Shown: one piece after another, positions 15,905 to 51,440 of the stretch | Position numbering within the stretch: the stretch's first letter is position 1 | Layout: every line of letters starts with the position of its first letter | DNA from: Siphonodentalium dalli | Taxonomy: Eukaryota; Mollusca; Scaphopoda; Gadilida; Siphonodentaliidae | DNA: 64,000 nucleotides | NCBI GenBank assembly: GCA_032622095.1 | Contig: CP136066.1 | Coordinates: 150,612,224 to 150,676,223 of the forward strand | Direction of reading: 5' to 3' | Notes under the pieces: generated by a model | What the model saw: only the letters and a program-made list of their open reading frames with translations | The model's database searches: none | Told to the model about the DNA's origin: nothing | Made by a program: the position numbers and the translations under genes

Positions 15905-16480
15905 TTTATTTGGACTTAAGTCCAAATATTTGGACTTAAGTCCAAATAGCGAATTGGACTTAAGTCCAAATACCACATAATTGTGAATTCGACGAGGAAT
16001 TGGACTTAAGTCCAAATGAATTACACTTAAGTGTAAATACTGATATTTTCATCTATTTGGACTTAAGTCCAATTCCTCGCCGAATTCACAATTATGTGGT
16101 ATTTGGACTTAAGTACAATTCATTTGGACTTTTAAGTCCAATTCAACTGTATAAGAAACACCCCCATCAGATATTAAGCAGGTCTGGTTTTGCTCATAGG
16201 GCGGAGTTGTGGGATAATGGCCATGTAATTCAGTCATGTCAGAAATGAATGAATAATGGGACTTAAGCGAATTGGACTTAAGTCCAAATACCACATAATT
16301 GTGAATTCGGCGAGGAATTGGACTTAAGTCAAAATAATTGGACTTAAGTCCAAATAATTGGACTTAAGTCAAAATAATTGGACTTAAGTCAAAATAGCGA
16401 TTGGACTTAAGTCCAAATACCACATAATTGTGAATTCGGCGAGGAATTGGACTTAAGTCCAATTAATTTGACTTAAAGGC
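15905..16480. repeat. Cluster of CTTAAG-centred palindromes (GGACTTAAGTCC type)
   Basis: At least nine exact or near-exact copies of TTGGACTTAAGTCCAA occur here, plus variants such as ACACTTAAGTGT and GGACTTAAGTCAAAA. They are linked by a spacer, CCACATAATTGTGAATTC followed by GGCGAGGAA, present in both orientations. The part at 15950-16140 is itself a larger inverted repeat. Confidence 0.85.
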
Positions 16481-16995: not shown

Positions 16996-17034
16996 TAAGT
17001 CCAAATACCACATAATTGTGAATTCGGCAAGGAC

Positions 17035-19552
17035 AATTTTGGGGTTCGATCAGACCTTTTTTCTCAAAGTTGAGCCCCCAATTAGACCTATTTGCATTAA
17101 TGCCACATAGAGGTCAAACTCCATACAAGCGCCCTCTACGTTACACTACATATCAGCGTAGAGATGAGAGATAACTCTGCCTGGAGTTTGCATAGAGGTA
17201 TCATTTCTGATATTTTCTATAGCATTATAAGATGGGATTGACCTTCAAGGAGCTTTTGACCCTGAAAATCCAAAATGGTCAAGAATAATTAAAATAGTGC
17301 AACATATAGAATTTTTTTTCATCTTTAAAGTATCAGTACATTGTGCTTCCACTCATGATTGCTCAACAAGGTTTTGGATGGAATGTATTGGCCATAGAAT
17401 GAAAAACTGACATTTTCTCAATAACCAAGATTTTGACAAAACCATAAATTTTATGGTAATTGATTAGTAGTGCAAACACTGCTGCAAACAAGGGTAGCTA
17501 AATAATATGATATGAATAAATACTTGTATTTATGAGTAGTTCATCCGTTTTATATTGATTTCACGGCCTTTGATATGAGATGGCTGCCAAAATGGCTATA
17601 GATGGGATGACTTATCACATTTTTATCATTGTAAATGAGTGCAATGTGGCATTTCATTTAAACTATAGCTAACAGGAGAACAGTATGTCTTTTATGGTTC
17701 TAATGTTGAATTGCAATTTAGTTTGAAATTTATTTTAATAAGTAAGGGTTATAGAACATAGTTCTTTACCAGAATCAATTGAGTCGAAGACGAGATCTAT
17801 TCTAGTAAAGAACTATCCACGTGCTCTGACCAGCTTGGAGCACAATTGACCATGCACAATGGGATTAGCTGGAAATCGCTGCTGAGCATGTGTTGACCTC
17901 GACACACAACATATGCCCTTCCAGACTTTGAACATTCCTTGGAAATTGGTGTATGTGCTTTATCAAAAATCGGGTAATCAACTGAAATGTACAGATTGAA
18001 CATTGGTTTTCAATATTTGTTGACAACATTTAGCAGCTGATCTGATTTAAGTGACCAAGCTATGGAACATGCTAAACACTTTTGCTAAATGGAATGACCA
18101 GCTGTTTGCTTCGTGCAGCAACCACAAGTTGCGATCTTAAAATGGGTATTTTATCTGTGCATAGTAAAAACATGTTGTAATCAGACGAGAGATGACCATA
18201 TATCCCAGTATATATTTCAGAAGTAATCAATTCTTCCAAAATGGCTATGACAACTCATCTCACAAAATTTTTTAGGAAATGATGGAATCATCACTATTCA
18301 ATCAATAGTAGAATGAGCCTTTGTCAGTCCCACATTAATTTTGATTGGCCATGATAGTTGCAGCACTTGCAGGTTGAAGAAAACGAGGGTCTATAATTTC
18401 ACTAACATAATTCTCCATAATAGCTAAAAGCCCTCATAACTTACCATTTTAAAGATATTTTCATTTTCAATACCACCCCAGGTTAAGTGGTCCTGCTAAT
18501 TTTAAATCATGCTGATGGGTACTGCTGGATTGCTATGATGTTTGTAGGTCAAAGCGATTGTGTTATTTTACCTAAAGTTGGTAATTTTTTCATTGTTTGG
18601 CTAATCCGAGCGATTTGTGCAAAAGCCAGTCTGTATGAAACATTCAAGAACATGTGTATTTCAAAATATTTAGTAATGTGTACGTTGATGTTTGGTAAAC
18701 AACAGGAATAGTCATCTCAATTATGGCCAGTTTGTGACAACCAGCGGCCATTATTAAAATATACATGTTTTTTAATGTTTTCTACATTTTCTATCCTCGA
18801 TTTGTTCAGATCACTTTGCTCTACCAGAGTATCATAGCAAATTTATTAGCATCATCACTCAACTTCGGATGAATACTGCCATATGAATATATTGTGACAT
18901 ATAGGGCAGTGGAAAATAATGGCTGAGTCTTTTTTAACTATAATTCTAGTACGGTTGTTGAAAACCTACACAATACTGTCTTGGTCATAGAGTCATGTTT
19001 ATTTAGGAGTATGGACATGCAGTCCACCATCTCATGAAAAGTAAATGGGCTCTGCACTAGTAACATCTGGGCTCCTGGGACCCATTAATATTGACAAATG
19101 CAACACAAATGAAAAATACATAGTAACTTTACTCAATCATAGATTATAACCTGACAATCATAGACATCATAGTGTTAGAATCAGTCTACATGTATATGTA
19201 GGCATGGCCATAGCATGTTTTTTGAAAGACTACAGAGTGTAGACCATAAATTTCACTAGAATATAGTTACTGCATGTACATCACACAACTAAAGCAACTG
19301 ACACATGTACTTGCATGGTACTTTTTTTTGGTGGTATCTCCCACACAGAGCAGCTCTATTACAATTACCAACAGGACATTCATTGCCATTTTATTTAGGT
19401 CTATATATTTATAAAATAGAAACTCATAAAAACTATGCAATCTTCATCATAAAAATTATTTTTGGAACATGAACATCTTTGGGCATATCTCCCGCAAAAA
19501 TCTCACGGATTGACATTTTCAAAACTTAACCAGTCTGATGGTACACAATATT
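17035..19552. repeat. Outer left flank of the giant inverted repeat
   Basis: Reverse-complement homology to 50590-51440 is seen in blocks: TTTTGGGGTTCGATCAG, GGGATTGACCTTCAAGGAGC, CCCTGAAAATCCAAAATGG, GAGATGGCTGCCAAAATGG, a block with TCTAATGTTGAATTG, and ATTTTGATTGGCCA near 18340. Homology is clear to about 18450. 17760-18300 is an extra segment absent from the right arm, with a small hairpin at 17760-17812. From 18450 to 19552 I see no gene and no sure mirror match. Confidence 0.75.
17115..17190. mobile_element. 76-bp MITE with 9-bp target-site duplication
   Basis: The insert begins CAAACTCCA and ends TGGAGTTTG, with an inner pair CTCTACG/CGTAGAG. It is flanked by CATAGAGGT at 17106-17114 and 17191-17199. 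The mirrored sequence in the right arm (about 51350-51370) has a single related copy of the target and no insert, giving an empty site. A 9-bp duplication fits Mutator-like elements best; hAT (8 bp) is possible. Confidence 0.75.

Positions 19553-19640
<88 letters not shown>
19553..19640. repeat. (TA)n microsatellite bounding the left satellite arm
   Basis: About 43 uninterrupted TA units. An equivalent TA tract lies at the mirrored position at 50216-50290. Confidence 0.95.
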
Positions 19641-19643
<3 letters not shown>

Positions 19644-19654
19644 TGTACGATTCT

Positions 19655-20077
19655 GTTAGCCAACCGCGTACCGCGATCGCGCCCCGCGATCGCGATCGTA
19701 AATCGCGATCAGATCGTATATACCCACCGACATCATAAATATGTCATTGTGGTCAGCGCACCAGTGGTAATTAAAATAACACCCTACAGAGCCCAGACTT
19801 ATCAGAACGAGCTCAGCACTAGTCCCGACATTAGCCTTGACCTTGACCTCGCTCATATATGCTCATATAGGCATGTTTCTGGACCTCGACCGATCCGACT
19901 ACAATTTAATATGTAGGCATACTTTGATCCCGGGAACAATACGGGTGGGTCAAATTTCACATGCAATCGCGTAATTGACCTTGACCTCTCTCATATATGC
20001 TCATCTAGGCATGTTTCTGGACCTTGACCGATCCCACTCAAATTTGGTATATATGCCTACTTTGATCCCGGGAACAA
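19655..20077. repeat. Left terminal cap of the satellite array
   Basis: From the outside inward: a CGCGATCG-rich segment (19665-19715); a diverged 361-bp-type monomer fragment (about 19727-19832) with CATTGTGGTCAGC and AGTCCCGACATTA; then two 138-bp direct repeats marked by TTGATCCCGGGAACAAT at about 19924 and 20062. TGACCTTGA occurs at 19838-19846 and 19976-19984. The same cap in reverse complement lies at 49826-50215. Confidence 0.85.
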
Positions 20078-23000
20078 TTAGTTGATGCATATGTGTAGAC
20101 AGTGTGACCTCTGGTAGTGGAAAACCGCTCCACGCAGTTGAAATTTGGTAAATACAGGTCATCACGGACTTCAATACGTCTATGTACAAACCCGAACATT
20201 ATCGCTATTATGGCCCGTTTATAGGGCTCCAGGACACCACACACGCATAACCCACGAACATAACAGGCATGTCATTGTGGTCAACACATCATCCCTATTT
20301 ACAATTTAACCCCACGCAGCTGGATTTCTAGAGCACGAGGTCAGCACGGGTCCCGACATATTCGTCGTGATTTCATATAAATTGGCATTTCTACCTAATT
20401 TCGAGGTACCAGGACACTCTACAGAGATAACCCTCCACATTAGTTGATTCATATGTGTAGACAGTGTGACCGCTGGTAGTGTAAAGCCGCCCCACGCAGT
20501 TGAAATTTGGTAAAAACAGGTCATCACGGACTTCAATACGTCTATGTACAAACCGAACATTATCGCTATTATGGCCCGTTTTTAGGGCTCCAGGACACCA
20601 CACACGCATAACCCACGAACATATCAGGCATGTCATTGTGGTCAACACATCATCCCTATTTACAATTTAACCCCACGCAGCTGGATTTCTATAGCACGAG
20701 GTCAGCACGGGTCCCGACATATTCGTCGTGATTTCATATAAATTGGCATTTCTACCTAATTTCGAGGTACCAGGACACTCTACAGAGATAACCCTATATG
20801 ATTAGTTGATTCATATGTGTAGACAGTGTGACCGCTGGTAGTGTAAAGCCGCCCCACGCAGTTGAAATTTGGTAAAAACAGGTCATCACGGACTTCAATA
20901 CGTCTATGTACAAACCGAACATTATCGCTATTATGGCCCGTTTTTAGGGCTCCAGGACACCACACACGCATAACCCACGAACATATCAGGCATGTCATTG
21001 TGGTCAACACATCATCCCTATTTACAATTTAACCCCACGCAGCTGGATTTCTAGAGCACGAGGTCAGCACGGGTCCCGACATATTCGTCGTGATTTCATA
21101 TAAATTGGCATTTCTACCTAATTTCGAGGTACCAGGACACTCTACAGAGATATCCCTCCGCATTAGTTGATGCATATGTGTAGAGAGTGTGACCGCTGGT
21201 AGTGGAAAACCACCCCACGCAGTTGAAATTTGGTAAAAACAGGTCATCACGGACTTCAATACGTCTATGTACAAACCGAACATTATCGCTAGTATGGCCC
21301 GTTTTTAGGGCTCCAGGACACCACACACGCATAACCCACGAACATAACAGGCATGTCATTGTGGTCAACACATCATCCCTATTTACAATTTAACCCCACG
21401 CAGCTGGATTTCTAGAGCACGAGGTCAGCACGGGTCCCGACATATTCGTCGTGATTTCATATAAATTGGCATTTCTACCTAATTTCGAGGTACCAGGACA
21501 CTCTACAGAGATAACCCTCCACATTAGTTGATTCATATGTGTAGACAGTGTGACCGCTGGTAGTGTAAAGCCGCCCCACGCAGTTGAAATTTTGTAAAAA
21601 CAGGTCATCACGGACTTCAATACGTTTATGTACAAACCGAACATTATCGCTATTATGGCCCGTTTTTAGGGCTCCAGGACACCACACACGCATAACCCAC
21701 GAACATACCAGGTATGTCATTGTGGTCAACACATCATCCTTATTTACAATTTAACCCCAAGCAGCTGGATTTCTAGAGCACGAGGTCAGCACGGGTCCCG
21801 ACATATTGGTCGTGATTTCATATAAATTGGCATTTCTACCTAATTTCGAGGTACCAGGACACTCTACAGAGATAACCCTCCACATTAGTTGATTCATATG
21901 TGTAGACAGTGTGACCGCTGGTAGTGTAAAGCCGCCCCACGCAGTTGAAATTTGGTAAAAACAGGTCATCACGGACTTCAATACGTCTATGTACAAACCG
22001 AACATTATCGCTATTATGGCCCGTTTTTAGGGCTCCAGGACACCACACACGCATAACCCACGAACATACCAGGTATGTCATTGTGGTCAACACATCATCC
22101 CTATTTACAATTTAACCCCACGCAGCTGGATTTCTAGAGCACGAGGTCAGCACGGGTCCCGACATATTCGTCGTGATTTCATATAAATTGGCATTTCTAC
22201 CTAATTTCGAGGTACCAGGACACTCTACAGAGATATCCCTCCGCATTAGTTGATGCATATGTGTAGAGAGTGTGACCGCTGGTAGTGGAAAACCACCCCA
22301 CGCAGTTGAAATTTGGTAAAAACAGGTCATCACGGACTTCAATACGTCTATGTACAAACCGAACATTATCGCTAGTATGGCCCGTTTTTAGGGCTCCAGG
22401 ACACCACACACGCATAACCCACGAACATAACAGGCATGTCATTGTGGTCAACACATCATCCCTATTTACAATTTAACCCCACGCAGCTGGATTTCTAGAG
22501 CACGAGGTCAGCACGGGTCCCGACATATTCGTCGTGATTTCATATAAATTGGCATTTCTACCTAATTTCGAGGTACCAGGACACTCTACAGAGATAACCC
22601 TTCACATTAGTTGATTCATATGTGTAGACAGTGTGACCGCTGGTAGTGTAAAGCCGCCCCACGCAGTTGAAATTTTGTAAAAACAGGTCATCACGGACTT
22701 CAATACGTCTATGTACAAACCGAACATTATCGCTATTATGGCCCGTTTTTAGGGCTCCAGGACACCACACACGCATAACCCACGAACATACCAGGTATGT
22801 CATTGTGGTCAACACATCATCCCTATTTACAATTTAACCCCACGCAGCTGGATTTCTAGAGCACGAGGTCAGCACGGGTCCCGACATATTGGTCGTGATT
22901 TCATATAAATTGGCATTTCTACCTAATTTCGAGGTACCAGGACACTCTACAGAGAAAACCCTCCACATTAGTTGATTCATATTTGTAGACAGTGTGACGG

Positions 23001-26000
23001 CTGGTAGTGTAAAGCCGCCCCACGCAGTTGAAATTTGGTAAAAACAGGTCATCACGGACTTCAATACGTCTATGTACAAACCGAACATTATCGCTATTAT
23101 GGCCCGTTTTTAGGGCTCCAGGACACCACACACGCATAACCCACGAACATATCAGGCATGTCATTGTGGTCAACACATCATCCCTATTTACAATTTAACC
23201 CCACGCAGCTGGATTTCTAGAGCACGAGGTCAGCACGGGTCCCGACATATTCGTCGTGATTTCATATAAATTGGCATTTCTACCTAATTTCGAGGTACCA
23301 GGACACTCTACAGAGATAACCCTCCACATTAGTTGATTCATATGTGTAGACAGTGTGACCGCTGGTAGTGTAAAGCCGCCCCACGCAGTTGAAATTTGGT
23401 AAAAACAGGTCATCACGGACTTCAATACGTCTATGTACAAACCGAACATTATCGCTAGTATGGCCCGTTTTTAGGGCTCCAGGACACCACACACGCATAA
23501 CCCACGAACATAACAGGCATGTCATTGTGGTCAACACATCATCCCTATTTACAATTTAACCCCACGCAGCTGGATTTCTAGAGCACGAGGTCAGCACGGG
23601 TCCCGACATATTCGTCGTGATTTCATATAAATTGGCATTTCTACCTAATTTCGAGGTACCAGGACACTCTACAGAGATAACCCTTCACATTAGTTGATTC
23701 ATATGTGTAGACAGTGTGACCGCTGGTAGTGTAAAGCCGCCCCACGCAGTTGAAATTTGGTAAAAACAGGTCATCACGGACTTCAATACGTCTATGTACA
23801 AACCGAACATTATCGCTATTATGGCCCGTTTTTAGGGCTCCAGGACACCACACACGCATAACCCACGAACATACCAGGTATGTCATTGTGGTCAACACAT
23901 CATCCCTATTTACAATTTAACCCCACGCAGCTGGATTTCTAGAGCACGAGGTCAGCACGGGTCCCGACATATTCGTCGTGATTTCATATAAATTGGCATT
24001 TCTACCTAATTTCGAGGTACCAGGACACTCTACAGAGATATCCCTCCGCATTAGTTGATGCATATGTGTAGAGAGTGTGACCGCTGGTAGTGGAAAACCA
24101 CCCCACGCAGTTGAAATTTGGTAAAAACAGGTCATCACGGACTTCAATACGTCTATGTACAAACCGAACATTATCGCTATAGTATGGCCCGTTTTTAGGG
24201 CTCCAGGACACCACACACACATAACCCACGAACATAACAGGCATGTCATTGTGGTCAACACATCATCCCTATTTACAATTTAACCCCACGCAGCTGGATT
24301 TCTAGAGCACGAGGTCAGCACGGGTCCCGACATATTCGTCGTGATTTCATATAAATTGGCATTTCTACCTAATTTCGAGGTACCAGGACACTCTACAGAG
24401 ATAACCCTTCACATTAGTTGATTCATATGTGTAGACAGTGTGACCGCTGGTAGTGTAAAGCCGCCCCACGCAGTTGAAATTTTGTAAAAACAGGTCATCA
24501 CGGACTTCAATACGTCTATGTACAAACCGAACATTATCGCTATTATGGCCCGTTTTTAGGGCTCCAGGACACCACACACGCATAACCCACGAACATACCA
24601 GGTATGTCATTGTGGTCAACACATCATCCCTATTTACAATTTAACCCCACGCAGCTGGATTTCTAGAGCACGAGGTCAGCACGGGTCCCGACATATTGGT
24701 CGTGATTTCATATAAATTGGCATTTCTACCTAATTTCGAGGTACCAGGACACTCTACAGAGATAACCCTCCACATTAGTTGATTCATATTTGTAGACAGT
24801 GTGACGGCTGGTAGTGTAAAGCCGCCCCACGCAGTTGAAATTTGGTAAAAACAGGTCATCACGGACTTCAATACGTCTATGTACAAACCGAACATTATCG
24901 CTATTATGGCCCGTTTTTAGGGCTCCAGGACACCACACACGCATAACCCACGAACATATCAGGCATGTCATTGTGGTCAACACATCATCCCTATTTACAA
25001 TTTAACCCCACGCAGCTGGATTTCTAGAGCACGAGGTCAGCACGGGTCCCGACATATTCGTCGTGATTTCATATAAATTGGCATTTCTACCTAATTTCGA
25101 GGTACCAGGACACTCTACAGAGATAACCCTCCACATAAGTTGATTCATATGTGTAGACAGTGTGACCGCTGGTAGTGTAAAGCCGCCCCACGCAGTTGAA
25201 ATTTGGTAAAAACAGGTCATCACGGACTTCAATACGTCTATGTACAAACCGAACATTATCGCTATTATGGCCCGTTTTTAGGGCTCCAGGACACCACACA
25301 CGCATAACCCACGAACATACCAGGTATGTCATTGTGGTCAACACATCATCCCTATTTACAATTTAACCCCAAGCAGCTGGATTTCTAGAGCACGAGGTCA
25401 GCACGGGTCCCGACATATTGGTCGTGATTTCATATAAATTGGCATTTCTACCTAATTTCGAGGTACCAGGACACTCTACAGAGATAACCCTCCACATTAG
25501 TTGATTCATATGTGTAGACAGTGTGACCGCTGGTAGTGTAAAGCCGCCCCACGCAGTTGAAATTTGGTAAAAACAGGTCATCACGGACTTCAATACGTCT
25601 ATGTACAAACCGAACATTATCGCTATTATGGCCCGTTTTTAGGGCTCCAGGACACCACACACGCATAACCCACGAACATACCAGGTATGTCATTGTGGTC
25701 AACACATCATCCCTATTTACAATTTAACCCCACGCAGCTGGATTTCTAGAGCACGAGGTCAGCACGGGTCCCGACATATTCGTCGTGATTTCATATAAAT
25801 TGGCATTTCTACCTAATTTCGAGGTACCAGGACACTCTACAGAGATATCCCTCCGCATTAGTTGATGCATATGTGTAGAGAGTGTGACCGCTGGTAGTGG
25901 AAAACCACCCCACGCAGTTGAAATTTGGTAAAAACAGGTCATCACGGACTTCAATACGTCTATGTACAAACCGAACATTATCGCTAGTATGGCCCGTTTT

Positions 26001-29000
26001 TAGGGCTCCAGGACACCACACACGCATAACCCACGAACATAACAGGCATGTCATTGTGGTCAACACATCATCCCTATTTACAATTTAACCCCACGCAGCT
26101 GGATTTCTAGAGCACGAGGTCAGCACGGGTCCCGACATATTCGTCGTGATTTCATATAAATTGGCATTTCTACCTAATTTCGAGGTACCAGGACACTCTA
26201 CAGAGATAACCCTTCACATTAGTTGATTCATATGTGTAGACAGTGTGACCGCTGGTAGAGTAAAGCCGCCCCACGCAGTTGAAATTTTGTAAAAACAGGT
26301 CATCACGGACTTCAATACGTCTATGTACAAACCGAACATTATCGCTATTATGGCCCGTTTTTAGGGCTCCAGGACACCACACACGCATAACCCACGAACA
26401 TACCAGGTATGTCATTGTGGTCAACACATCATCCCTATTTACAATTTAACCCCACGCAGCTGGATTTCTAGAGCACGAGGTCAGCACGGGTCCCGACATA
26501 TTGGTCGTGATTTCATATAAATTGGCATTTCTACCTAATTTCGAGGTACCAGGACACTCTACAGAGATAACCCTCCACATTAGTTGATTCATATTTGTAG
26601 ACAGTGTGACCGCTGGTAGTGTAAAGCCGCCCCACGCAGTTGAAATTTGGTAAAAACAGGTCATCACGGACTTCAATACGTCTATGTACAAACCGAACAT
26701 TATCGCTATTATGGCCCGTTTTTAGGGCTCCAGGACACCACACACGCATAACCCACGAACATATCAGGCATGTCATTGTGGTCAACACATCATCCCTATT
26801 TACAATTTAACCCCACGCAGCTGGATTTCTAGAGCACGAGGTCAGCACGGGTCCCGACATATTCGTCGTGATTTCATATAAATTGGCATTTCTACCTAAT
26901 TTCGAGGTACCAGGACACTCTACAGAGATATCCCTCCACATTAGTTGATGCATATGTGTAGAGAGTGTGACCGCTGGTAGTGGAAAACCACCCCACGCAG
27001 TTGAAATTTGGTAAAAACAGGTCATCACGGATTTCAATACGTCTATGTACAAACCGAACATTATCGCTAGTATGGCCCGTTTTTAGGGCTCCAGGACACC
27101 ACACACGCATAACCAACGATCATAACAGGCATGTCATTGTGGTCAACACATCATCCCTATTTACAATTTAACCCCACGCAGCTGGATTTCTAGAGCACGA
27201 GGTCAGCACGGGTCCCGACATATTCGTCGTGATTTCATATAAATTGGCATTTCTACCTAATTTCGAGGTACCAGCACACTCTACAGAGATAACCCTCCAC
27301 ATTAGTTGATTCATATGTGTAGACAGTGTGACCGCTGGTAGTGTAAAGCCGCCCCACGCAGTTGAAATTTTGTAAAAACAGGTCATCACGGACTTCAATA
27401 CGTCTATGTACAAACCGAACATTATCGCTATTATGGCCCGTTTTTAGGGCTCCAGGACACCACACACGCATAACCCACGAACATACCAGGTATGTCATTG
27501 TGGTCAACACATCATCCCTATTTACAATTTAACCCCACGCAGCTGGATTTCTAGAGCACGAGGTCAGCACGGGTCCCGACATATTGGTCGTGATTTCATA
27601 TAAATTGGCATTTCTACCTAATTTCGAGGTACCAGGACACTCTACAGAGATAACCCTCCACATTAGTTGATTCATATTTGTAGACAGTGTGACCGCTGGT
27701 AGTGTAAAGCCGCCCCACGCAGTTGAAATTTGGTAAAAACAGGTCATCACGGACTTCAATACGTCTATGTACAAACCGAACATTATCGCTATTATGGCCC
27801 GTTTTTAGGGCTCCAGGACACCACACACGCATAACCCACGAACATATCAGGCATGTCATTGTGGTCAACACATCATCCCTATTTACAATTTAACCCCACG
27901 CAGCTGGATTTCTAGAGCACGAGGTCAGCACGGGTCCCGACATATTCGTCGTGATTTCATATAAATTGGCATTTCTACCTAATTTCGAGGTACCAGGACA
28001 CTCTACAGAGATATCCCTCCACATTAGTTGATGCATATGTGTAGAGAGTGTGACCGCTGGTAGTGGAAAACCACCCCACGCAGTTGAAATTTGGTAAAAA
28101 CAGGTCATCACGGATTTCAATACGTCTATGTACAAACCGAACATTATCGCTAGTATGGCCCGTTTTTAGGGCTCCAGGACACCACACACGCATAACCCAC
28201 GAACATAACAGGCATGTCATTGTGGTCAACACATCATCCCTATTTACAATTTAACCCCACGCAGCTGGATTTCTAGAGCACGAGGTCAGCACGGGTCCCG
28301 ACATATTCGTCGTGATTTCATATAAATTGGCATTTCTACCTAATTTCGAGGTACCAGGACACTCTACAGAGATAACCCTCCACATTAGTTGATTCATATG
28401 TGTAGACAGTGTGACCGCTGGTAGTGTAAAGCCGCCCCACGCAGTTGAAATTTGGTAAAAACAGGTCATCACGGACTTCAATACGTCTATGTACAAACCG
28501 AACATTATCGCTATTATGGCCCGTTTTTAGGGCTCCAGGACACCACCCGACATATTCGTCGTGATTTCATATAAATTGGCATTTCTACCTAATTTCGAGG
28601 TACCAGGACACTCTACAGAGATATCCCTCCACATTAGTTGATGCATATGTGTAGAGAGTGTGACCGCTGGTAGTGGAAAACCACCCCACGCAGTTGAAAT
28701 TTGGTAAAAACAGGTCATCACGGACTTCAATACGTCTATGTACAAACCGAACATTATCGCTAGAATGGCCCGTTTTTAGGGCTCCAGGACACCACACACG
28801 CATAACCCACGAACATAACAGGCATGTCATTGTGGTCAACACATCATCCCTATTTACTATTTAAACCCACGCAGCTGGATTTCTAGAGCACGAGGTCAGC
28901 ACGGGTCCCGACATATTCGTCGTGATTTCATATAAATTGGCATTTCTACCTAATTTCGAGGTACCAGGACACTCTACAGAGATAACCCTCCACATTAGTT

Positions 29001-40964: not shown

Positions 40965-41105
40965 GGGGGGGGGTCCAATCCCAGATTCCCAGGAAATAAA
41001 TCAGCAAATCCCAGTTCCCAGGAAAAAAATATGCCATTTCCCAGCTCCCAGGAATTAAAAGCAAATCCCAGTTCCCAGTAAAAAAAAAGCCAGTTCCCAG
41101 GAATT
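40965..41105. repeat. Short tandem repeats of a TCCCAGTTCCCAGGAA unit
   Basis: About five imperfect copies of a 25-30-bp unit made of AATCCCAGTTCCCAGGAA followed by an A/T-rich spacer. A separate block at 41390-41540 has a comparable unit, TTCCCGGGTCCCGGAAAATA, in about six variants. The two may be ends of one decayed element, but I see no clear boundary. Confidence 0.6.
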
Positions 41106-42012
41106 AAAATATTACATAGAGTATCGACAAAACATACAATATTCACAAGTAATGTAGATCAATGTAGCCTACATATATTGTATTTTTATGCTATATTTTG
41201 ATTTGTTGGCTACTGTCTGGTCAATTACATCATTTTACATGACATAAAATGCGAACCTATATGCAAATCCATTGAACAGAATCAACAGATCACTCTTTAC
41301 ACTGATCTACACCACTGCAAACCAGGTATTCCCTAAATGTCCACGTGATGTATGCAAATTCATGTGGTGAATAAAAATGGAAATCCCGATTAATTGGGGA
41401 TAATTTCCCGGGTCCCGGAAAATAATTTCAACCTTTCCCGGGTCCCGGTGGAATTCTGTTCCCGATTCCCGGAAAATTAAATCTGACGATCCCAATTCCC
41501 GAAAAATAAAAAGGGTCGATCCCGGTGTCCCGAAAATACCCGCCCCTCCTATCGTTGGGTCGATTTCTTCTAATAAGATACTACAATGCACATGGAAAAC
41601 CATCTAAACAGATTGTGCAACACAATGAATTTATGTCAAAGCGTCAATGTAGGCTATATGGAATATCGACGTTTATAAATATCGATCTTCTTGTGGACTT
41701 CGTTCGAATGAATTCCGGCAGCTTGGGATAAATTTATAATGGACATCAGTGTGATGGCCACTGTGTCATACATATTATATTGTAATTTACGACCCTGCCT
41801 AACTATGCTTAAAAGCCATGTCCTGATTGGCCAGTGGCCCGAGTTACCATTGGCTATATCGTTCCAGTTTTGTGGTACAATTCTACTTTTTCCAATTGTA
41901 CCACGAAAACAATAGGTTTATTCAGATCGCCGCACGCGACTTTTCCCGTCTTTTCTAACTCCGCACAAACGGGGCATCGATGGAGTACACCCGCACCCGT
42001 AACATAAGATAG

Positions 42013-42201
42013 GGGGCTCGTTAGGTTCAATCGTTAGTCAAAAATATACACAAACATGACGCTCAAATATGACGCCCTGCTCTGTCGAAAATATACTTAC
42101 GCCCATTTTTATCAACGATTCTCAAAGATATAGTACTATATAGTACTAACATACTCAAAATACACTTATGCCCACTTTTACGATTGAACCTAACGAGCCC
42201 C
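42013..42201. mobile_element. ~190-bp MITE with 22-bp terminal inverted repeats
   Basis: Begins GGGGCTCGTTAGGTTCAATC and ends with the exact inverse, GATTGAACCTAACGAGCCCC. Inside, AAAATATACTTACGCCCATT and AAATACACTTATGCCCACTT form a degenerate direct repeat. TA lies close to both ends, consistent with but not proving a Tc1/mariner-type TA target. Confidence 0.75.
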
Positions 42202-42433
42202 ACTATATTCTCGTAACCATTTGAATTTTTCTACATCTTGACAATCTTGCGAATTTTCTAGCGATTTATACATCTTTAGTGGTCATCAACTCTAAAAGCG
42301 GGACATATGCGCTCTGATATAAATGTCTGATATACATACCGGTATCAGATTCTGTGATGACACAATAAGCGAGATCACTGAGTCGCTGCCGTTTTGGATT
42401 AATCCAGCTCCGATCCGTGATTTCCGAGATTTA

Positions 42434-42592
42434 TCCAGCTCAGGTTTCGTGGTTTTAGTGATAAAGGTCAATGTTTTGGAGTAGCTTTCCAGATCAGATA
42501 ACGAAGTTATGGATTATTCCGGTTTCCATATACGGAAATGCTACTCCAGAACTTTGACATGTATAGCACTATAACCGCTGAACCGAGCCTGT
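42434..42592. repeat. Inverted repeat with ~55-bp arms
   Basis: The left arm contains GTGGTTTTAGTGATAAAGGT and TTTTGGAGTAGC. The right arm has GCTACTCCAGAACTTTGACA and GCACTATAACCGC, the inverse with about 15-20% mismatch. The ~40-bp loop contains GATAACGAAGTTATGG. Confidence 0.6.
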
Positions 42593-42729
42593 GGTTCCAA
42601 TATGGCCGCGAGTTAGTGACATGGCGTATTCTTCACATCCTCAGCTGTATAGAGTCGATAACTTCTTCGATCTCTAAAAATATACTTCACTCCATTACCA
42701 AATAACGCTGAGCATCCTGAAATTGGACT

Positions 42730-45700
42730 CAAATGACGATTTATTTGAAATCACGACATTTATGCCCTGGCTCGTGTTGACATCGTCCTTGAGCTGCGTG
42801 TGTTCATTTGTAACGGTCACTATAGTATAGAGATTACTACTGGAATAACTTATTTATCGGCTGGTTATCAGATGAGTTTGTTGTGTAAATATCAAGGGTC
42901 CATGATGACATACTTTTGCCAAACTTCATGTAACTGTGTGAGGTGGTTTCCCATTATCAGAGGTAATGTGAAACGCACTACTAATAACCAAAATTTGAGG
43001 GCGCTTGTACATCTCCACAGCGAGTCCCGGTACCTCGCAATTAGGTAAACACGGCAATTGATGCGAAATCACTAATGTGGACGGACATCTCCAAAGAGTC
43101 ATGGCACCTCGAAATTAGGTAAAAATGACAATTTATATTAAACCACGACGAATATGTCGGGACCCGTGCTGACATCGGCTCTAGATATCAGGCTGCGCGG
43201 GGTTAAACTGTAATTAGGACTGATGTGGTGACCACCACTAAAGACTAACCATGTTCGTGGGATATGCGTGTGGGGTGACCTGGAGCTCTAAAATCGGGCC
43301 ATAATAGCGATAATGTTCGGTCTGTACACTGAAGTATTGAAGTCCGTGATTACCTATTATACTTTTCCCAAATTTCAACTGCGTGCGGTGGTTTTCCACT
43401 ACCAGCGGTCACACTGTCTACACATTTGCATCAACTAATGTTGAGGGATATCTCTGTAGATTGTCCTGGTACCTCGAAATTAGGTAGAAATGCAAATTTA
43501 TATGAAATCACGACGAATATGTCGGGACCCGTGCTGACCTCATGCTCTAGAAATCCGACTACGTGGGTTTAAATTGTAATTAGGGTTGATGTGTTGACCA
43601 CAATGATATACCTGTTATGTTCGTGGATTATGCGTGTGGAGTGTCCTTGAGCCCTAAAAACGGGCCATAAAAGCGATAATTTTTGGTTTGTACATAGACG
43701 TATTGAAGTCCGTGATGACATTTTTTACCAAATTTCAACTGCGTGGGGTGGTTTTCCACTATACCAGCGGTCACACTCTCTACACATATGCATCAACTAA
43801 TGTGGATGGATATCTCTGTAGAGTGTCCTGGTACCTCGAAATTAGGTAGAAATGCCAATCTATATGAAATCACGACGAATATGTCGGGACCCGTGCTGAC
43901 CTCGTGCACTAGAAATCCAGCTGCGTGGGGTTAAATTGTAAATAGGGATGATGTGTTGACCACAATGACATGCCTGTTATGTTCGTGGGTTATGCGTGTG
44001 TGGTGTCCTGGAGCCCTAAAAACGGGCCATACTAGCGATAATGTTCGGTTTGTACATAGACGTATTGAAGTCCGTGATGACCTGTTTTTACCAAATTTCA
44101 ACTGCGTGGGGTGGTTTTCCACTACCAGCGGTCACACTCTCTACACATATGCATCAACTAATGTGGAGGGATATCTCTGTAGAGTGTCCTGGTACCTCGA
44201 AATTAGGTAGAAATGCCAATTTATATGAAATCACGACGAATATGTCGGGTGGTGTCCTGGAGCCCTAAAAACGGGCCATAATAGCGATAATGTTCGGTTT
44301 GTACATAGACGTATTGAAGTCCGTGATGACCTGTTTTTACCAAATTTCAACTGCGTGGGGCGGCTTTACACTACCAGCGGTCACACTGTCTACACATATG
44401 AATCAACTAATGTGGAGGGTTATCTCTGTAGAGTGTCCTGGTACCTCGAAATTAGGTAGAAATGCCAATTTATATGAAATCACGACGAATATGTCGGGAC
44501 CCGTGCTGACCTCGTGCTCTAGAAATCCAGCTGCGTGGGGTTAAATTGTAAATAGGGATGATGTGTTGACCACAATGACATGCCTGTTATGTTCGTGGGT
44601 TATGCGTGTGTGGTGTCCTGGAGCCCTAAAAACGGGCCATACTAGCGATAATGTTCGGTTTGTACATAGACGTATTGAAGTCCGTGATGACCTGTTTTTA
44701 CCAAATTTCAACTCCGTGGGGTGGTTTTCCACTACCAGCGGTCACACTCTCTACACTTATGCATCAACTAATGTGGAGGGATATCTCTGTAGAGTGTCCT
44801 GGTACCTCGAAATTAGGTAGAAATGCCAATTTATATGAAATCACGACGAATATGTCGGGACCCGTGCTGACCTCGTGCTCTAGAAATCCAGCTGCGTGGG
44901 GTTAAATTGTAAATAGGGATGATGTGTTGACCACAATGACATGCCTGTTATGTTCGTGGGTTATGCGTGTGTGGTGTCCTGGAGCCCTAAAAACGGGCCA
45001 TACTAGCGATAATGTTCGGTTTGTACATAGACGTATTGAAGTCCGTGATGACCTGTTTTTACCAAATTTTAACTCCTTGGGGTGGTTTTCCACTACCAGC
45101 GGTCACACTCTCTACACTTATGAATCAACTAATGTGGAGGGATATCTCTGTAGAGTGTCCTGGTACCTCGAAATTAGGTAGAAATGCCAATTTATATGAA
45201 ATCACGACGAATATGTCGGGACCCGTGCTGACCTCGTGCTCTAGAAATCCAGCTGCGTGGGGTTAAATTGTAAATAGGGATGATGTGTTGACCACAATGA
45301 CATGCCTGTTATGTTCGTGGGTCATGCGTGTGTGGTGTCCTGGAGCCCTAAAAACGGGCCATACTAGCGATAATGTTCGGTTTGTACATAGACGTATTGA
45401 AGTCCGTGATGACCTGTTTTTACCAATTTTCAACTGCGTGGGGTGGTTTTCCACTACCAGCGGTCACACTCTCTACACTTATGCATCAACTAATGTGGAG
45501 GGATATCTCTGTAGAGTGTCCTGGTACCTCGAAATTAGGTAGAAATGCCAATTTATATGAAATCACGACGAATATGTCGGGACCCGTGCTGACCTCGTGC
45601 TCTAGAAATCCAGCTGCGTGGGGTTAAATTGTAAATAGGGATGATGTGTTGACCACAATGACATGCCTGATATGTTCGTGGGTTATGCGTGTGTGGTGTC

Positions 45701-48700
45701 CTGGAGCCCTAAAAACGGGCCATAATAGCGATAATGTTCGGTTTGTACATAGACGTATTGAAGTCCGTGATGACCTGTTTTTACCAAATTTCAACTGCGT
45801 GGGGCGCCTTTACACTACCAGCGGTCACACTGTCTACACATATGAATCAACTTATGTGGAGGGTTATCTCTGTAGAGTGTCCTGGTACCTCGAAATTAGG
45901 TAGAAATGCCAATTTATATGAAATTACGACCAATATGTCGGGACCCGTGCTGACCTCGTGCTCTAGAAATCCAGCTGCTTGGGGATAAATTGTAAATAGG
46001 GATGATGTGTTGACCACAATGACATACCTGATATGTTCGTGGGTTATGCGTGTGTGGTGTCCTGGAGCCCTAAAAACGGGCCATAATAGCGATAATGTTC
46101 GGTTTGTACATAGACGTATTGAAGTCCGTGATGACCTGTTTTTACCAAATTTCAACTGCATGGGGCGGCTTTACACTACCAGCGGTCACACTGTCTACAC
46201 ATATGAATCAACTAATGTGGAGGGTTATCTCTGTAGAGTGTCCTGGTACCTCGAAATTAGGTAGAAATGCCAATTTATATGAAATCACGACGAATATGTC
46301 GGGACCCGTGCTGACCTCGTGCTCTAGAAATCCAGCTGCGTGGGGTTAAATTGTAAATAGGGATGATGTGTTGACCACAATGACATGCCTGTTATGTTCG
46401 TGGGTTATGCGTGTGTGGTGTCCTGGAGCCCTAAAAACGGGCCATACTAGCGATAATGTTCGGTTTGTACATAGACGTATTGAAGTCCGTGATGACCTGT
46501 TTTTACCAAATTTCAACTGCGTGGGGTGGTTTTCCACTACCAGCGGTCACACTCTCTACACATATGCATCAACTAATGTGGAGGGATATCTCTGTAGAGT
46601 GCCCTGGTACCTCGAAATTAGGTAGAAATGCCAATTTATATGAAATCACGACGAATATGTCGGGACCCGTGCTGACCTCGTGCTCTAGAAATCCAGCTGC
46701 GTGGGGTTAAATTGTAAATAGGGATGATGTGTTGACCACAATGACATGCCTGATATGTTCGTGGGTTTTGCGTGTGTGGTGTCCTGGAGCCCTAAAAACG
46801 GGCCATAATAGCGATAATGTTCGGTTTGTACATAGACGTATTGAAGTCCGTGATGACCTGTTTTTACCAAATTTCAACTGCGTGGGGCGGCTTTACACTA
46901 CCAGCGGTCACACTGTCTACACATATGAATCAACTAATGTGGAGGGTTATCTCTGTAGAGTGTCCTGGTACCTCGAAATTAGGTAGAAATGCCAATTTAT
47001 ATGAAATCACGACGAATATGTCGGGACCCGTGCTGACCTCGTGCTCTAGAAATCCAGCTGCGTGGGGTTAAATTGTAAATAGGGATGATGTGTTGACCAC
47101 AATGACATGCCTGTTATGTTCGTGGGTTATGCGTGTGTGGTGTCCTGGAGCCCTAAAAACGGGCCATACTAGCGATAATGTTCGGTTTGTACATAGACGT
47201 ATTGAAGTCCGTGATGACCTGTTTTTACCAAATTTCAACTGCGTGGGGCGGCTTTACACTACCAGCGGTCACACTGTCTACACATATGAATCAACTAATG
47301 TGGAGGGTTATCTCTGTAGAGTGTCCTGGTACCTCGAAATTAGGTAGAAATGCCAATTTATATGAAATCACGACGAATATGTCGGGACCCGTGCTGACCT
47401 CGTGCTCTAGAAATCCAGCTGCGTGGGGTTAAATTGTAAATAGGGATGATGTGTTGACCACAATGACATGCCTGTTATGTTCGTGTGTTATGCGTGTGTG
47501 GTGTCCTGGAGCCCTAAAAACGGGCCATACTAGCGATAATGTTCGGTTTGTACATAGACGTATTGAAGTCCGTGATGACCTGTTTTTACCAAATTTCAAC
47601 TGCGTGGGGCGGCTTTACACTACCAGCGGTCACACTGTCTACACATATGAATCAACTAATGTGGAGGGTTATCTCTGTAGAGTGTCCTGGTACCTCGAAA
47701 TTAGGTAGAAATGCCAATTTATATGAAATCACGACCAATATGTCGGGACCCGTGCTGACCTCGTGCTCTAGAAATCCAGCTGCGTGGGGTTAAATTGTAA
47801 ATAGGGATGATGTGTTGACCACAATGACATGCCTGATATGTTCGTGGGTTATGCGTGTGTGGTGTCCTGGAGCCCTAAAAACGGGCCATAATAGCGATAA
47901 TGTTCGGTTTGTACATAGACGTATTGAAGTCCGTGATGACCTGTTTTTACCAAATTTCAACTGCGTGGGGTGGTTTTCCACTACCAGCGGTCACACTCTC
48001 TACACATATGCATCAACTAATGCGGAGGGATATCTCTGTAGAGTGTCCTGGTACCTCGAAATTAGGTAGAAATGCCAATTTATATGAAATCACGACGAAT
48101 ATGTCGGGACCCGTGCTGACCTCGTGCTCTAGAAATCCAGCTGCGTGGGGTTAAATTGTAAATAGGGATGATGTGTTGACCACAATGACATGCCTGATAT
48201 GTTCGTGGGTTATGCGTGTGTGGTGTCCTGGAGCCCTAAAAACGGGCCATAATAGCGATAATGTTCGGTTTGTACATAGACGTATTGAAGTCCGTGATGA
48301 CCTGTTTTTACCAAATTTCAACTGCGTGGGGCGGCTTTACACTACCAGCGGTCACACTCTCTACACATATGAATCAACTAATGTGGAGGGTTATCTCTGT
48401 AGAGTGTCCTGGTACCTCGAAATTAGGTAGAAATGCCAATTTATATGAAATCACGACGAATATGTCGGGACCCGTGCTGACCTCGTGCTCTAGAAATCCA
48501 GCTGCGTGGGGTTAAATTGTAAATAGGGATGATGTGTTGACCACAATGACATGCCTGATATGTTCGTTGGTTATGCGTGTGTGGTGTCCTGGAGCCCTAA
48601 AAACGGGCCATAATAGCGATAATGTTCGGTTTGTACATAGACGTATTGAAGTCCGTGATGACCTGTTTTTACCAAATTTCAACTGCGCGGGGCGGCTTTA

Positions 48701-49825
48701 CACTACCAGCGGTCACACTGTCTACACATATGAATCAACTAATGTGGAGGGTTATCTCTGTAGAGTGTCCTGGTACCTCGAAATTAGGTAGAAATGCCAA
48801 TTTATATGAAATCACGACGAATATGTCGGGACCCGTGCTGACCTCGTGCTCTAGAAATCCAGCTGCGTGGGGTTAAATTGTAAATAGGGATGATGTGTTG
48901 ACCACAATGACATGCCTGTTATGTTCGTGGGTTATGCGTGTGTGGTGTCCTGGAGCCCTAAAACGGGCCATACTAGCGATAATGTTCGGTTTGTACATAG
49001 ACGTATTGAAGTCCGTGATGACCTGTTTTTACCAAATTTCAACTGCGTGGGGTGGTTTTCCACTACCAGCGGTCACACTCTCTACATATATATGCATCAA
49101 CTAATGTGGAGGGATATCTCTGTAGAGTGTACTGGTACCTCGAAATTAGGTAGAAATGCCAATTTATATGAAATCACGACGAATATGTCGGGACCCGTGC
49201 TGACCTCGTGCTCTAGAAATTCAGCTGCGTGGGGTTAAATTGTAATTAGGGCTGATGTGTTGACCACAATGACATACCTGCTATATTCGTGGGTTATGCC
49301 TGTGTGGTGTCCTGGAGCCCTAAAACGGGCCATAATAGCGATCATGTTCGGTTTGTACATAGAAGTATTGAATTCCGTGATGACCTGCTTTTGCCAAATT
49401 TCAACTGCGTGGGTGGTTTTCCACTACCAGCGGTCACACTCTATACAAATATGCATCAACTAATGTGGAGGGATATCTCTGTAGAGTGTCCTGGTACCTC
49501 GAAATTAGGTAGAAATGCCAATTTATATGAAATCACGAAGAATATGTCGGGACCCGTGCTGACCTCGTGCTCTAGAAATCCAGCTGCGTGGGGATAAATT
49601 GTAATTAGGGCTGATGTGTCGACCACAATGACATACCTGTTATGTTCGTGGGTTATGCGTGTGGGGTGTCTAGGAGCCCTAAAAACGGGCCATAATAGCG
49701 ATAATGTTCGGGTTTGTACATAGACGTATTGAAGTCCGTGATGACCTGTTTTTACCAAATTTCAACTGCGTGGAGCGGTTTTCCACTACCAGAGGTCACA
49801 CTGTCTACACATATGCATCAACTAA
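42730..49825. repeat. 361-bp satellite array, right arm, inverted, about 19-20 monomers
   Basis: The same A and B monomers as the left arm, in reverse complement. The inner edge (42730-43740) is a graded run of increasingly diverged monomers: the first is barely recognisable (TTTGAAATCACGAC, GTTTCCCATTATCAGAGGT), the next two are clear, and the rest are homogeneous from about 43750. A 249-bp monomer lies at about 44040-44290. The outer monomers near 49290-49600 are of the B' kind. The order near the outer end is B-A-A(-A). Confidence 0.97.
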
Positions 49826-50215
49826 TTGTTCCCGGGATCAAAGTAGGCATATATACCAAATTTGAGTGGGATCGGTCAAGGTCCAGAAACATGCCTAGAT
49901 GAGCATATATGAGAGAGGTCAAGGTCAAGGACGCGATCGCATGTGAAATTTGACCCACCCGTATTGTTCCCGGGATCAAAGTATGCCTACATATTAAATT
50001 TTAGTCGGATCGGTCGAGGTCCAGAAACATGCCTATATGAGCATATATGAGCGAGGTCAAGGTCAAGGCTAATGTCGGGACTAGTGCTGAGCTCGTTCTG
50101 ATAAGTCTGGGCTCTGTAAGGTGTTATTTTAATTACCACTGGTGCGCTGACCACAATGACATATTTATGATGTCGGTGGGTATATATACGATCTGATCGC
50201 GATTTACGATCGCGG
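49826..50215. repeat. Right terminal cap of the satellite array
   Basis: The mirror of 19655-20077: two 138-bp direct repeats starting TTGTTCCCGGGATCAAAGTA at 49826 and 49964, then a diverged monomer (about 50070-50165), then CGATCTGATCGCGATT leading into TA repeats. TCAAGGTCA occurs at 49919-49927 and 50057-50065. Confidence 0.85.
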
Positions 50216-50262
<47 letters not shown>

Positions 50263-50263
50263 C

Positions 50264-50290
<27 letters not shown>
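50216..50290. repeat. (TA)n microsatellite bounding the right satellite arm
   Basis: TA repeats interrupted once by AGC near 50261. They mirror the tract at 19553-19640. Confidence 0.95.
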
Positions 50291-50295
<5 letters not shown>

Positions 50296-51440
50296 GAAGC
50301 CCTATATTTTTAATGTGTAGATTTGACTGGACTAAAGCCCTTATACAATAATCTGAAGGATTATTTTCAATCTTTATTACTGGACATCACACCAATAACC
50401 AATATACATACATTTATTAGTTTTGAACAGGACAATATCTTTTAATATTACTGCAACTGCATTCTTTCTTATGACTTGTTTTCTTACAAACTCCCAAATT
50501 TGAACCAGAAACAATTTAGGGCAAATATACATCTACGTGTACATATACATATATGTTCAAATTCATAAAAAAAACACTCAATCAGAATATAAGTATAGGC
50601 GATCATGCCGGGCTAGCCATTATTTGTCCTAAAATAATGTACATGTTAGGAAAATAGTAGAACCTTTATACAAAATGGCGTTGATGACATGTGGCCAATC
50701 AAAATTGCTGTGGGACTGTTAAAGACACAATCTGCTCGACTACCAAATCACACGGTTTTATCAAATTGTAGTAAATCAACATTTACTAAACCTACTTGTG
50801 GGATGAATATAATTCAATTCAACATTAGAGTACCATAAATACATTCTTTTCTCCCATAAATTTAAAGAAAAAAAACCACATTGAACTCATTTATAATGAT
50901 AATGTGATAAATGTCATCCCATTTATAACCATTTTGGCAGCCATCTCACATCAAAGGCCATGAAATCTAGATAGCAAAGGATGAACTATTCACAATTACA
51001 TGTATTCATTCAAATTATATCACTAGGTAACCTTATTGCAGGAGTTTTAGGTTACTGATTAAATGCCCTATAATTGATGATTTCCTCAACATCTTTGTAA
51101 TACGGCAAATGTCTGTTTTTCATTCTACGACCAATATATTCCATCTAAAAACCTTGCTAAGCACTCATGAGTGAAAGCACAAAGGTGCTGATCCTTTAAA
51201 GATGAAAAAATTCTATAGGTAGCACAATTTTTAATTATTCTTGACTTTGCTAAATTTTTGCAAATTTGAAGTCGGCCATTTTGGATTTTCAGGGTCAAGA
51301 GCTCCTTGAAGGTCAATCCCGTCTGATAATGGTACAGAAAATATCATAAATGATACCTGTATGTGGCACGGATGCATATAGGTCAATAAAATTCTAATTG
51401 GGGGCTCAACTTTGAGAAAAAAGGGCTGATCGAACCCCAA
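50291..51440. repeat. Outer right flank of the giant inverted repeat
   Basis: From about 50590 to 51440 the sequence matches the left flank (17035-18450) in inverted order, including GCCAATCAAAATTG, CCATTTTGGCAGCCATCTCA, CCATTTTGGATTTTCAGGGT, AGCTCCTTGAAGGTCAATCC and CTGATCGAACCCCAAAA. 50291-50590 shows no certain mirror match. There is no gene. Confidence 0.75.

What the first reader, a model, noticed from the sequence alone, without database searches (positions are those of the whole stretch)
17035..51440. A 34-kb giant inverted repeat whose arms are made of 361-bp satellite
The order is flank, (TA)n, cap, satellite array, spacer, inverted array, inverted cap, (TA)n, inverted flank. Caps and TA tracts match at both ends, so this is more than two arrays that happen to face each other. 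It resembles a very large foldback element (tandem repeats inside long inverted termini, as in Drosophila FB or Galileo), or a palindromic duplication of one end of a larger satellite domain. Mirror homology outside the TA tracts favours an inverted duplication, or an element ending at about 17035 and 51440, over an element ending at the TA tracts.
Basis: partly seen in the sequence, partly recalled or inferred. Interest (0 to 1): 0.85.

Follow-up and report, generated by a model that had tools for sequence, protein, structure and literature searches.

The report
Giant satellite-armed foldback transposon
The window holds one copy of a recently active family of jumping DNA elements, typically 15-45 kb long, whose two mirror-image arms are made almost wholly of a 361-bp repeat; this is a much larger version of a rare known kind of mobile element and a direct link between jumping genes and satellite DNA.

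Summary
The inverted structure is real, but it is not a local duplication. The same 2.85-kb spacer occurs at least 24 times at full length (98-100% identity), on all 9 contigs. Copies read outward show one plan: TIR/cap, 361-bp array, spacer, inverted array, inverted cap, with different flanks beyond a (TA)n tract. It is a non-autonomous foldback DNA transposon. Its ends are (TA)n|GAGATGTACGATTCTG..., not 17035/51440; the mirrored outer flanks belong to another dispersed repeat into which this copy inserted. End pairs support an 8-bp target-site duplication (permutation P about 0.002; no other length from 2 to 12 shows a significant excess), and the target repeat without the element carries (CA/TA)n. 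Arms run from 2 to 36 kb, change mostly by whole 361-bp units and carry private block duplications. This copy has a 112-bp deletion found in the 2.2-Gb genome only here, once in each arm, mirrored: sequence was probably copied from arm to arm. Some copies are spacerless satellite palindromes. No transposase was found; a MULE is my best guess. Closest known: Tetris (D. virilis) and the TA-targeting MuTAnT MULEs.

The parts
19642..50214 (.). whole non-autonomous foldback element (this copy; right end truncated by ~49 bp)
   Evidence: Same plan in five copies elsewhere; boundary at the cap edge
19555..19641 (.). left (TA)n tract = insertion target
   Evidence: TRF; (TA)n abuts the TIR in other copies; a target repeat without the element carries (CA/TA)n
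50218..50294 (.). right (TA)n tract = insertion target
   Evidence: TRF
19642..20076 (+). left cap with the TIR end GATGTACGATTCTGTTAGCCAACCGCG...
   Evidence: 41 matches at 98-100% genome-wide (best 40 of 2306 candidates scored); TIR pattern 55 forward/58 reverse, control 0/0
49827..50214 (-). right cap, inverted, lacking its outermost ~49 bp
   Evidence: 98.2% to the left cap; alignment; no TIR hit at this end among the 100 places listed
19835..19940 (+). first ~138-bp cap sub-unit (second at 19975-20078); a sister subfamily has further copies of it in the cap
   Evidence: 89-90% between the two sub-units; extended caps in 13 of 20 end loci
20077..39890 (+). left arm: tandem 361-bp units, ends abruptly at the spacer
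   Evidence: TRF 23.5 + 31.4 copies, units cut
39891..42739 (+). spacer, no open frame of 100 aa or more
   Evidence: 24 full-length matches genome-wide, this one included; longest stop-to-stop frame 98 aa
42740..49826 (-). right arm: inverted 361-bp units, degenerate next to the spacer (42740-44249)
28384..28630 (+). unit with a 112-bp deletion (junction at 28546), left-arm copy
   Evidence: junction 31-mer occurs twice in the genome, both in this element
44165..44411 (-). the same deleted unit, mirrored, in the right arm (junction at 44249)
17034..19541 (+). host repeat, left part (not part of the element)
   Evidence: 17034-17720 searched: dispersed family; that the mirror homology stops at 17034 comes; extent to 19541 inferred
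50295..51445 (-). host repeat, right part, inverted relative to the left part (not part of the element)
   Evidence: 77-98% to the left part; not searched on its own

Best explanation
This is one copy of a young, dispersed, non-autonomous foldback DNA transposon. A transposase supplied from elsewhere recognises the inverted ends (GAGATGTACGATTCTGTTAGCC...) and inserts the element into (TA)n microsatellites with an 8-bp target-site duplication. Each long inverted arm is a ~435-bp cap plus an array of 361-bp units. Arms grow and shrink mainly by whole units through block tandem duplication (unequal exchange, or repair/replication using the arm as template), and sequence is now and then copied from one arm to the other. 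Loss of the centre gives pure satellite palindromes. Shown: dispersal, ends, TA-tract target, 8-bp duplication (statistical), unit-step arm lengths, block duplications confined to single arms, mirrored private deletion. Inferred: cut-and-paste by a MULE-type (Mutator-like) transposase; arm-to-arm copying as the cause of the mirrored deletion; whether copies move at full length or move shorter and expand afterwards.
For: Spacer: at least 24 full-length matches at 98-100% on 9 contigs (40 of 4466 candidates scored). Of five other copies read outward, three are complete (c2, c5, c7) and two run off one end of the stretch (c3, c4); the same plan in each, different flanks. TIR 31-mer: 113 places, 55 forward and 58 reverse, reversed-pattern control 0; the 100 listed form 36 convergent pairs, 24 with spacer sequence (15.0-44.2 kb, median 26.5 kb) and 12 without. 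TSD: of 27 end pairs 18 match at 8 bp (permutation P 0.0017); of 12 pairs interrupted within 8 bp, 3 match exactly (P 0.002); lengths 2, 4, 6, 10, 12 show no significant excess, odd lengths 3-11 never match. Target repeat without element: 446+485 places, those listed with a (CA/TA)-rich tract; L074/75 and L096/97 sit in that repeat. Arms: 17 of 22 and 16 of 22 within 20 bp of a common phase modulo 361. Block duplications, e.g. 14 units at lag 11 in c3R. Deletion junction: two places in the genome, one per arm of this copy. Satellite 26-mer: 2291 exact places; the 100 listed lie in 3 elements on C1, + in left arms and - in right arms.
Against: No transposase found in the members read, and none of the 150 scored PF10551 hits lies in a listed TIR pair (compared mainly by eye). 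Nine of the 12 informative end pairs do not match exactly at 8 bp (6 with one mismatch, 3 with more), which I attribute to microsatellite mutation. Arm-to-arm copying is not general: units of the two arms of one element are on average no closer than units of different elements (7.49 against 7.03 and 7.51 differences). Some flanks are shared on one side (c4 and c5 right; c2 right and L083), as copies of dispersed repeats. Insertion polymorphism could not be tested. Only 4 spacer-bearing elements were read end to end, this one included; the others rest on TIR and spacer positions.
Confidence: 0.9

Rival explanations
1. Palindromic (inverted) duplication of the end of a satellite domain at this locus, with ends at 17035/51440.
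For: Mirror homology outside the TA tracts at 77-98%.
Against: The spacer recurs at full length at 23 other places; copies read have the same junctions and other flanks; the outer flank is a dispersed repeat; the satellite places listed elsewhere lie in TIR-bounded elements.
Confidence: 0.02
2. Assembly artefact: false joins of a satellite array to its own reverse complement.
For: Long palindromes and satellites are hard to assemble (general knowledge).
Against: Copies on 9 contigs with different flanks and arm lengths share the same two spacer junctions; forward and reverse TIR counts balance; an artefact would not give matching 8-bp duplications. Arm lengths and the turn-round of spacerless copies could still contain errors.
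Confidence: 0.04
3. The same transposon, but moved by another superfamily that makes 8-bp duplications (hAT, P or Merlin) rather than by a MULE.
For: TSD is 8 bp, while the TA-targeting MULE MuTAnT makes 9 (PMC4486113). No transposase found. Foldback form also exists outside MULEs (exceptions named in PMC4079207).
Against: TA-microsatellite targeting with foldback structure is described in MULEs (PMC4486113; PMC5907723 passages); the GAGAT start recalls maize MuDR ends (recalled, no call); MULE domains are abundant here (150 scored of 813 candidates). Other superfamilies were not searched for.
Confidence: 0.4
4. Satellite spread by ectopic recombination or reinsertion of extrachromosomal circles, not by transposase.
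For: Satellite arrays can disperse in such ways (general knowledge).
Against: Fixed ends at both sides, TIR symmetry, 8-bp duplication, tiny derivatives with the same ends (L052 143 bp, L066 about 60 bp).
Confidence: 0.03
5. Copies transpose at their present full length (15-45 kb) and arms change little afterwards.
For: Cap, spacer and inner junctions intact in the large copies read.
Against: Arm lengths vary 2-36 kb while the 8 spacers compared differ at only 5-14 of about 2849 sites; recent block duplications are confined to single arms; the arms of one element do not match in length (r = -0.42 on logs, 22 elements).
Confidence: 0.3

Closest known systems
Tetris (Drosophila virilis foldback transposon; PMC4079207, passages read)
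   Same: TIRs made of an outer flanking domain plus tandem repeats (TIR-220); no ORF; middle domain; satellite amplified inside the TIR; transposase not found; TSD 8-10 bp; short relative DAIBAM; repeat shares a stretch with the flanking domain (here cap 74-190 is 73-77% similar to part of the 361-bp unit)
   Different: Tetris TIRs reach 1,735 bp and 3 structurally complete copies were reported; here 24 spacer-bearing TIR pairs of 15-44 kb with arms of 2-36 kb. Tetris repeats also form arrays without the flanking domain; here the listed satellite places lie inside elements. Target here is (TA)n. The Tetris authors suggested that larger arrays may have disrupted transposition.
MuTAnT (Medicago MULE targeting TA microsatellites; PMC4486113, parts 1-2 of 4 read)
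   Same: Insertion into (TA)n, foldback TIRs, non-autonomous copies, variable terminal bases, related empty sites with TA tracts
   Different: Mostly 200-300 bp (up to 1.6 kb; autonomous copy 4.9 kb) against 15-45 kb; 9-nt TSD against 8; TIR GGGGTTTGC...; no satellite arms; an autonomous MULE is known
SaTar/TAFT(A) elements (guayule, rice, maize; PMC5907723, passages read)
   Same: TA-microsatellite targeting; four rice families were classed as MULEs
   Different: 0.4-1.9 kb, 10-bp TSD in guayule, no satellite arms mentioned in the passages read
Galileo and Drosophila FB (named in PMC4079207 passages; details recalled)
   Same: Long inverted termini with internal tandem repeats
   Different: Termini far shorter; no TA-tract target known to me (recalled)

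Membership tests
Foldback-type TIR DNA transposon | Long inverted termini with internal tandem repeats around a middle segment | tested here: met
Foldback-type TIR DNA transposon | Dispersed copies with common ends and different flanks | tested here: met
Foldback-type TIR DNA transposon | Target-site duplication | tested here: met
   8 bp; 18 of 27 end pairs exact, P 0.0017; 3 of 12 informative pairs exact, P 0.002
Mutator-like element (MULE) | MULE transposase (PF10551) in an autonomous relative with the same ends | tested here: inconclusive
   None found: no PF10551 hit in a listed TIR pair (150 of 813 candidates scored, 100 of 113 TIR places listed); no coding member among those read. Described as 'works like a TA-targeting MULE', not filed as a member
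Mutator-like element (MULE) | TSD of 8-11 bp, mostly 9 (range recalled; 9 in PMC4486113) | tested here: inconclusive
   8 bp: in range but not the usual 9
Mutator-like element (MULE) | Long TIRs with a characteristic terminal motif | tested here: inconclusive
   Long TIRs yes; likeness of GAGAT to MuDR ends is recalled only
Tetris | Sequence homology to Tetris | not tested
   Only the architecture was compared, from the paper
TA-microsatellite-targeting elements (functional class) | Insertion within pre-existing (TA)n tracts | tested here: met
   TA tracts flank the 27 end pairs; target repeat without element at 931 places, those listed with (CA/TA)n

The most novel reading that the evidence does not exclude
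A satellite DNA that exists essentially only as the arms of a transposon: mobile palindromes of 15-45 kb that spread in a recent burst, re-expand or rewrite their arrays in place within a short time, and exchange sequence between arms as chromosomal palindromes do. Satellite turnover and transposition would then be one process.
Probability: 0.4. Interest if true: 0.78.

Novelty: new variant of a known kind. Interest (0 to 1): 0.64.

Why it matters
It shows a satellite carried around a genome inside a transposon at a scale (arms up to 36 kb) about twenty times the longest Tetris TIR (1.7 kb). A review states that DNA transposition drops markedly above about 6 kb of cargo, although 100-200 kb was moved in artificial systems (PMC6431247 passage), and long arrays were suggested to stop Tetris. 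Some 24 spacer-bearing copies with few differences in the spacer give independent, datable replicates of the same array, so the rate and mode of satellite expansion, block duplication and palindrome arm-to-arm exchange become directly measurable.

Tried and rejected
Ends at 17035/51440: rejected. Local inverted duplication: rejected. Coding spacer: longest frame 98 aa; no Pfam search was run on spacer frames, so this rests on frame length only. ISL2EU/Tc1-type 2-bp duplication (a lead from memory; PMC12730594 passages): not favoured, because 2 bp shows no excess among end pairs while 8 bp does. KolobokP (PMC9587614, abstract and section list only): not favoured, direct rather than inverted long repeats. 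Autonomous partner: the PF10551 search gave no hit in a listed TIR pair; pattern ATAGAGATGTACGATTD gave 3 places, of which two sit in sequence without match to the element (L112, L113) and one is an old satellite relative (L114); pattern ATAGAGATGTACGATTCTGTTAD was badly designed (D admits the normal base) and returned 84 places, all continuing with G. Of those 84, 80 lie at ends listed; of the other four, two were read and are short truncated ends (L117, L118), two (on C3 and C8) were not read. General homogenisation of arms within an element: not seen. Rfam and tRNA scans of the window: nothing. An early note said that the sister subfamily's arms are cap sub-units instead of the satellite; later reads (L115, L116) show longer caps followed by 361-bp units. 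The species was not identified.

In the listings of ten paper searches I saw no paper that from title or abstract start describes this family; the library lacks most subscription journals and most listed papers were not opened.
Full report
Observation. Self-comparison confirms a large inverted structure: the right array 43068-49826 aligns inverted to 29727-22967 at 96.1%, the caps 49827-50214 and 20076-19691 at 98.2%, each outer end followed by a (TA)n tract. The left array has about 55 units, the right about 20. The left array stops abruptly at 39890; the right array decays towards the spacer (42740-44249). Mirror homology beyond the TA tracts is present but weaker and patchy (53 bp at 98%, 568 aligned columns at 77%).

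It is a dispersed element. The spacer matched 48 places in the window's genome (2.23 Gb, 9 contigs; 40 of 4466 first candidates scored, so counts are lower bounds): 24, this one included, span the full 2801-base query at 98-100%, the rest are partial. I fetched 20 kb on either side of five other copies. Three are complete in the stretch (c2, c5, c7), two run off one end (c3, c4); each shows cap, array, spacer, inverted array, inverted cap as far as read. Outside the caps their sequences differ, except that c4 and c5 share one dispersed repeat on the right, and c2 shares its right flank with L083. Each end reached sits in (TA)n followed by GAGATGTACGATTCTG. In this window the left end reads TATAGATG (one GA fewer) and the right end lacks the outermost ~49 bp, so this copy is probably immobile (inference).

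Outer flanks. 17034-17720 matches 39 other scored places (of 2061 candidates), at 87-92% over positions 158-687 (one from 202); 38 further rows match positions up to 81 at 79-82%. It is therefore a common dispersed repeat. That the mirror homology stops at 17034/51445 comes; the search query began at 17034, so the family's true edge was not tested.

Census. The TIR 31-mer with up to 3 mismatches occurs 55 times forward and 58 reverse, against 0 and 0 for the reversed pattern. Of these 113 places 100 were listed; they form 36 convergent pairs and 28 singles. Twenty-four pairs hold spacer sequence (14,966-44,172 bp, median 26.5 kb), 12 do not (143 bp to 45 kb). Of the latter, L030 (7.6 kb) was read whole: two satellite arrays meeting head to head with no spacer; a 6-kb central stretch of the 14.5-kb pair (L031) shows the same with a 46-bp gap. 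In the 45-kb pair all 11 samples, in the 30.5-kb pair all 7 and in the 29-kb pair both of 2 are satellite, switching strand part way; one sample contains the turn-round (L046). L029 is a 2.6-kb deleted copy with foreign sequence. The other listed pairs without spacer were not read, apart from their ends. Of 20 end loci fetched, one is a 143-bp derivative (L052), one a derivative of about 60 bp (L066), four have the ordinary cap and satellite (L056, L061, L062, L065), one a rearranged cap and satellite (L053), and thirteen (L054, L055, L057-L060, L063, L064, L067-L071) show extra ~138-bp cap sub-units: a sister subfamily with longer caps. Where that subfamily was read further in (L115, L116) it also has 361-bp arms.

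Target and duplication. For 27 end pairs I compared the bases next to GAGATG and CATCTC. In pure TA tracts the left side stops with A and the right side starts with T, so an odd duplication is excluded there; no odd length from 3 to 11 matches in any pair. At 8 bp 18 of 27 match exactly (mean 13.0 when partners are shuffled, P 0.0017); 2, 4, 6, 10 and 12 bp show no significant excess (P 0.10 to 0.49). Twelve pairs have an interruption within 8 bp: 3 match exactly (L109/110 and L066 TATATAGC, L096/97 TTTATATA; P 0.002), 6 differ at one base, 3 at two or more. Two elements (L074/75, L096/97) lie in a repeat with the words ATGAAGTACCCACA...CGGAAGTCTCAAA (slightly diverged on the right of L075); with 6-36 bases between the words, hence without an element, it occurs 931 times, and the places listed, all on C1, have a (CA/TA)-rich tract there. 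So the microsatellite was there first. Expansion after insertion, as reported for maize TAFTA elements (PMC5907723 passage), is compatible with the long tracts.

Age. Eight spacers, the tool's best-scoring 8 and so biased towards close ones, differ at 5-14 of about 2849 sites; 31 variable columns are singletons and 3 are shared (two of them adjacent). This looks like a recent burst.

How the arms change. In the 22 pairs with a single spacer match, arm lengths are 2.0-31.6 and 3.3-36.2 kb; 17 of 22 and 16 of 22 lie within 20 bp of a common phase modulo 361, so change is mostly by whole units (the exceptions were not examined). Several arms contain recent tandem duplications of blocks (units at most one difference apart): 14 consecutive units repeated at lag 11 in c3R, 7 at lag 5 in c2R, 6 at lag 7 in c5L and c7R; seven of the thirteen arms tested, including both of this window, show no such run of 3 or more units. 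Arms of one element are on average not more alike than arms of different elements, so there is no general homogenisation. One clear exception is this window: a unit with a 112-bp deletion lies in both arms, mirrored, and in none of the other loci then held. Its 31-base junction, with up to 3 mismatches allowed, occurs in the whole genome exactly twice, both here. The 361 bp on its outer side are identical between arms and the two neighbouring bins differ at 4 positions each; such likeness alone is not unusual for these units, the shared deletion is. Copying from arm to arm after the deletion arose is the simplest reading; a lost parent element carrying it in both arms is possible.

The satellite and the element. 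A 26-mer present in 358 of 408 units occurs 2291 times in the genome; the 100 places listed lie in only three elements on contig C1, forward in left arms and reverse in right arms. The other 2191 were not listed, so 'only in elements' is an extrapolation. Part of the cap (74-190) is 73-77% similar to part of the satellite unit, as in Tetris, where the repeat shares a stretch with the flanking domain.

Transposase. None found. Frames in the spacer reach at most 98 aa. PF10551 has 150 scored hits of 813 candidates, none inside a listed TIR pair (compared mainly by eye; the nearest is 28 kb away). A 22-base exact end with the TA prefix occurs 84 times; 80 are at ends already listed, two of the other four are truncated ends and two were not read. 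The partner therefore probably has a less similar end, or is missing from this assembly. I rate MULE at about 0.55, because TA-tract targeting and foldback form go together in MuTAnT (PMC4486113) and 8 bp lies within the MULE range (recalled).

Verdict. A foldback transposon of a known general kind, but far larger and with more structurally complete copies than reported for Tetris, with a TA-tract target and arms that are a satellite in their own right.

Noticed in passing
13565-15358 (-): 597-aa frame with PIH1 N-terminal and PIH1 CS-like domains, so a kintoun/DNAAF2-like gene (name recalled) lies 4.3 kb from the element.
   Followed up: partly
1928-3474: A second small foldback-like unit: 419-column inverted repeats (1928-2345/3474-3057, 94.7%) around a 163-bp tandem repeat (2434-2873); 2567-2956 recurs inverted at 11974-12356 at 85%.
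   Followed up: no
57193-62281: Tandem array with a unit of about 538 bp, longest self-matches 95-98% identical (TRF reports period 184 with 56% matches).
   Followed up: no
15907-16476 and 52632-54438: Clusters of short palindromic repeats around CTTAAG (for example TTTGGACTTAAGTCCAAA).
   Followed up: no
9747-10693: 161-bp tandem repeat, 5.7 copies.
   Followed up: no
L029, L030, L052, L058, L080, L100: The words CCCGGACGAAGTCGG or CCCGGACAACGTCGGG (either strand) recur a few bases from the TA tracts beside several insertions: another repeat family associated with TA microsatellites.
   Followed up: no
window 40960-41550: Part of the spacer (TCCCAG/TCCCGG-rich repeats) has 92-98% relatives at six scored loci without the rest of the spacer.
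   Followed up: no
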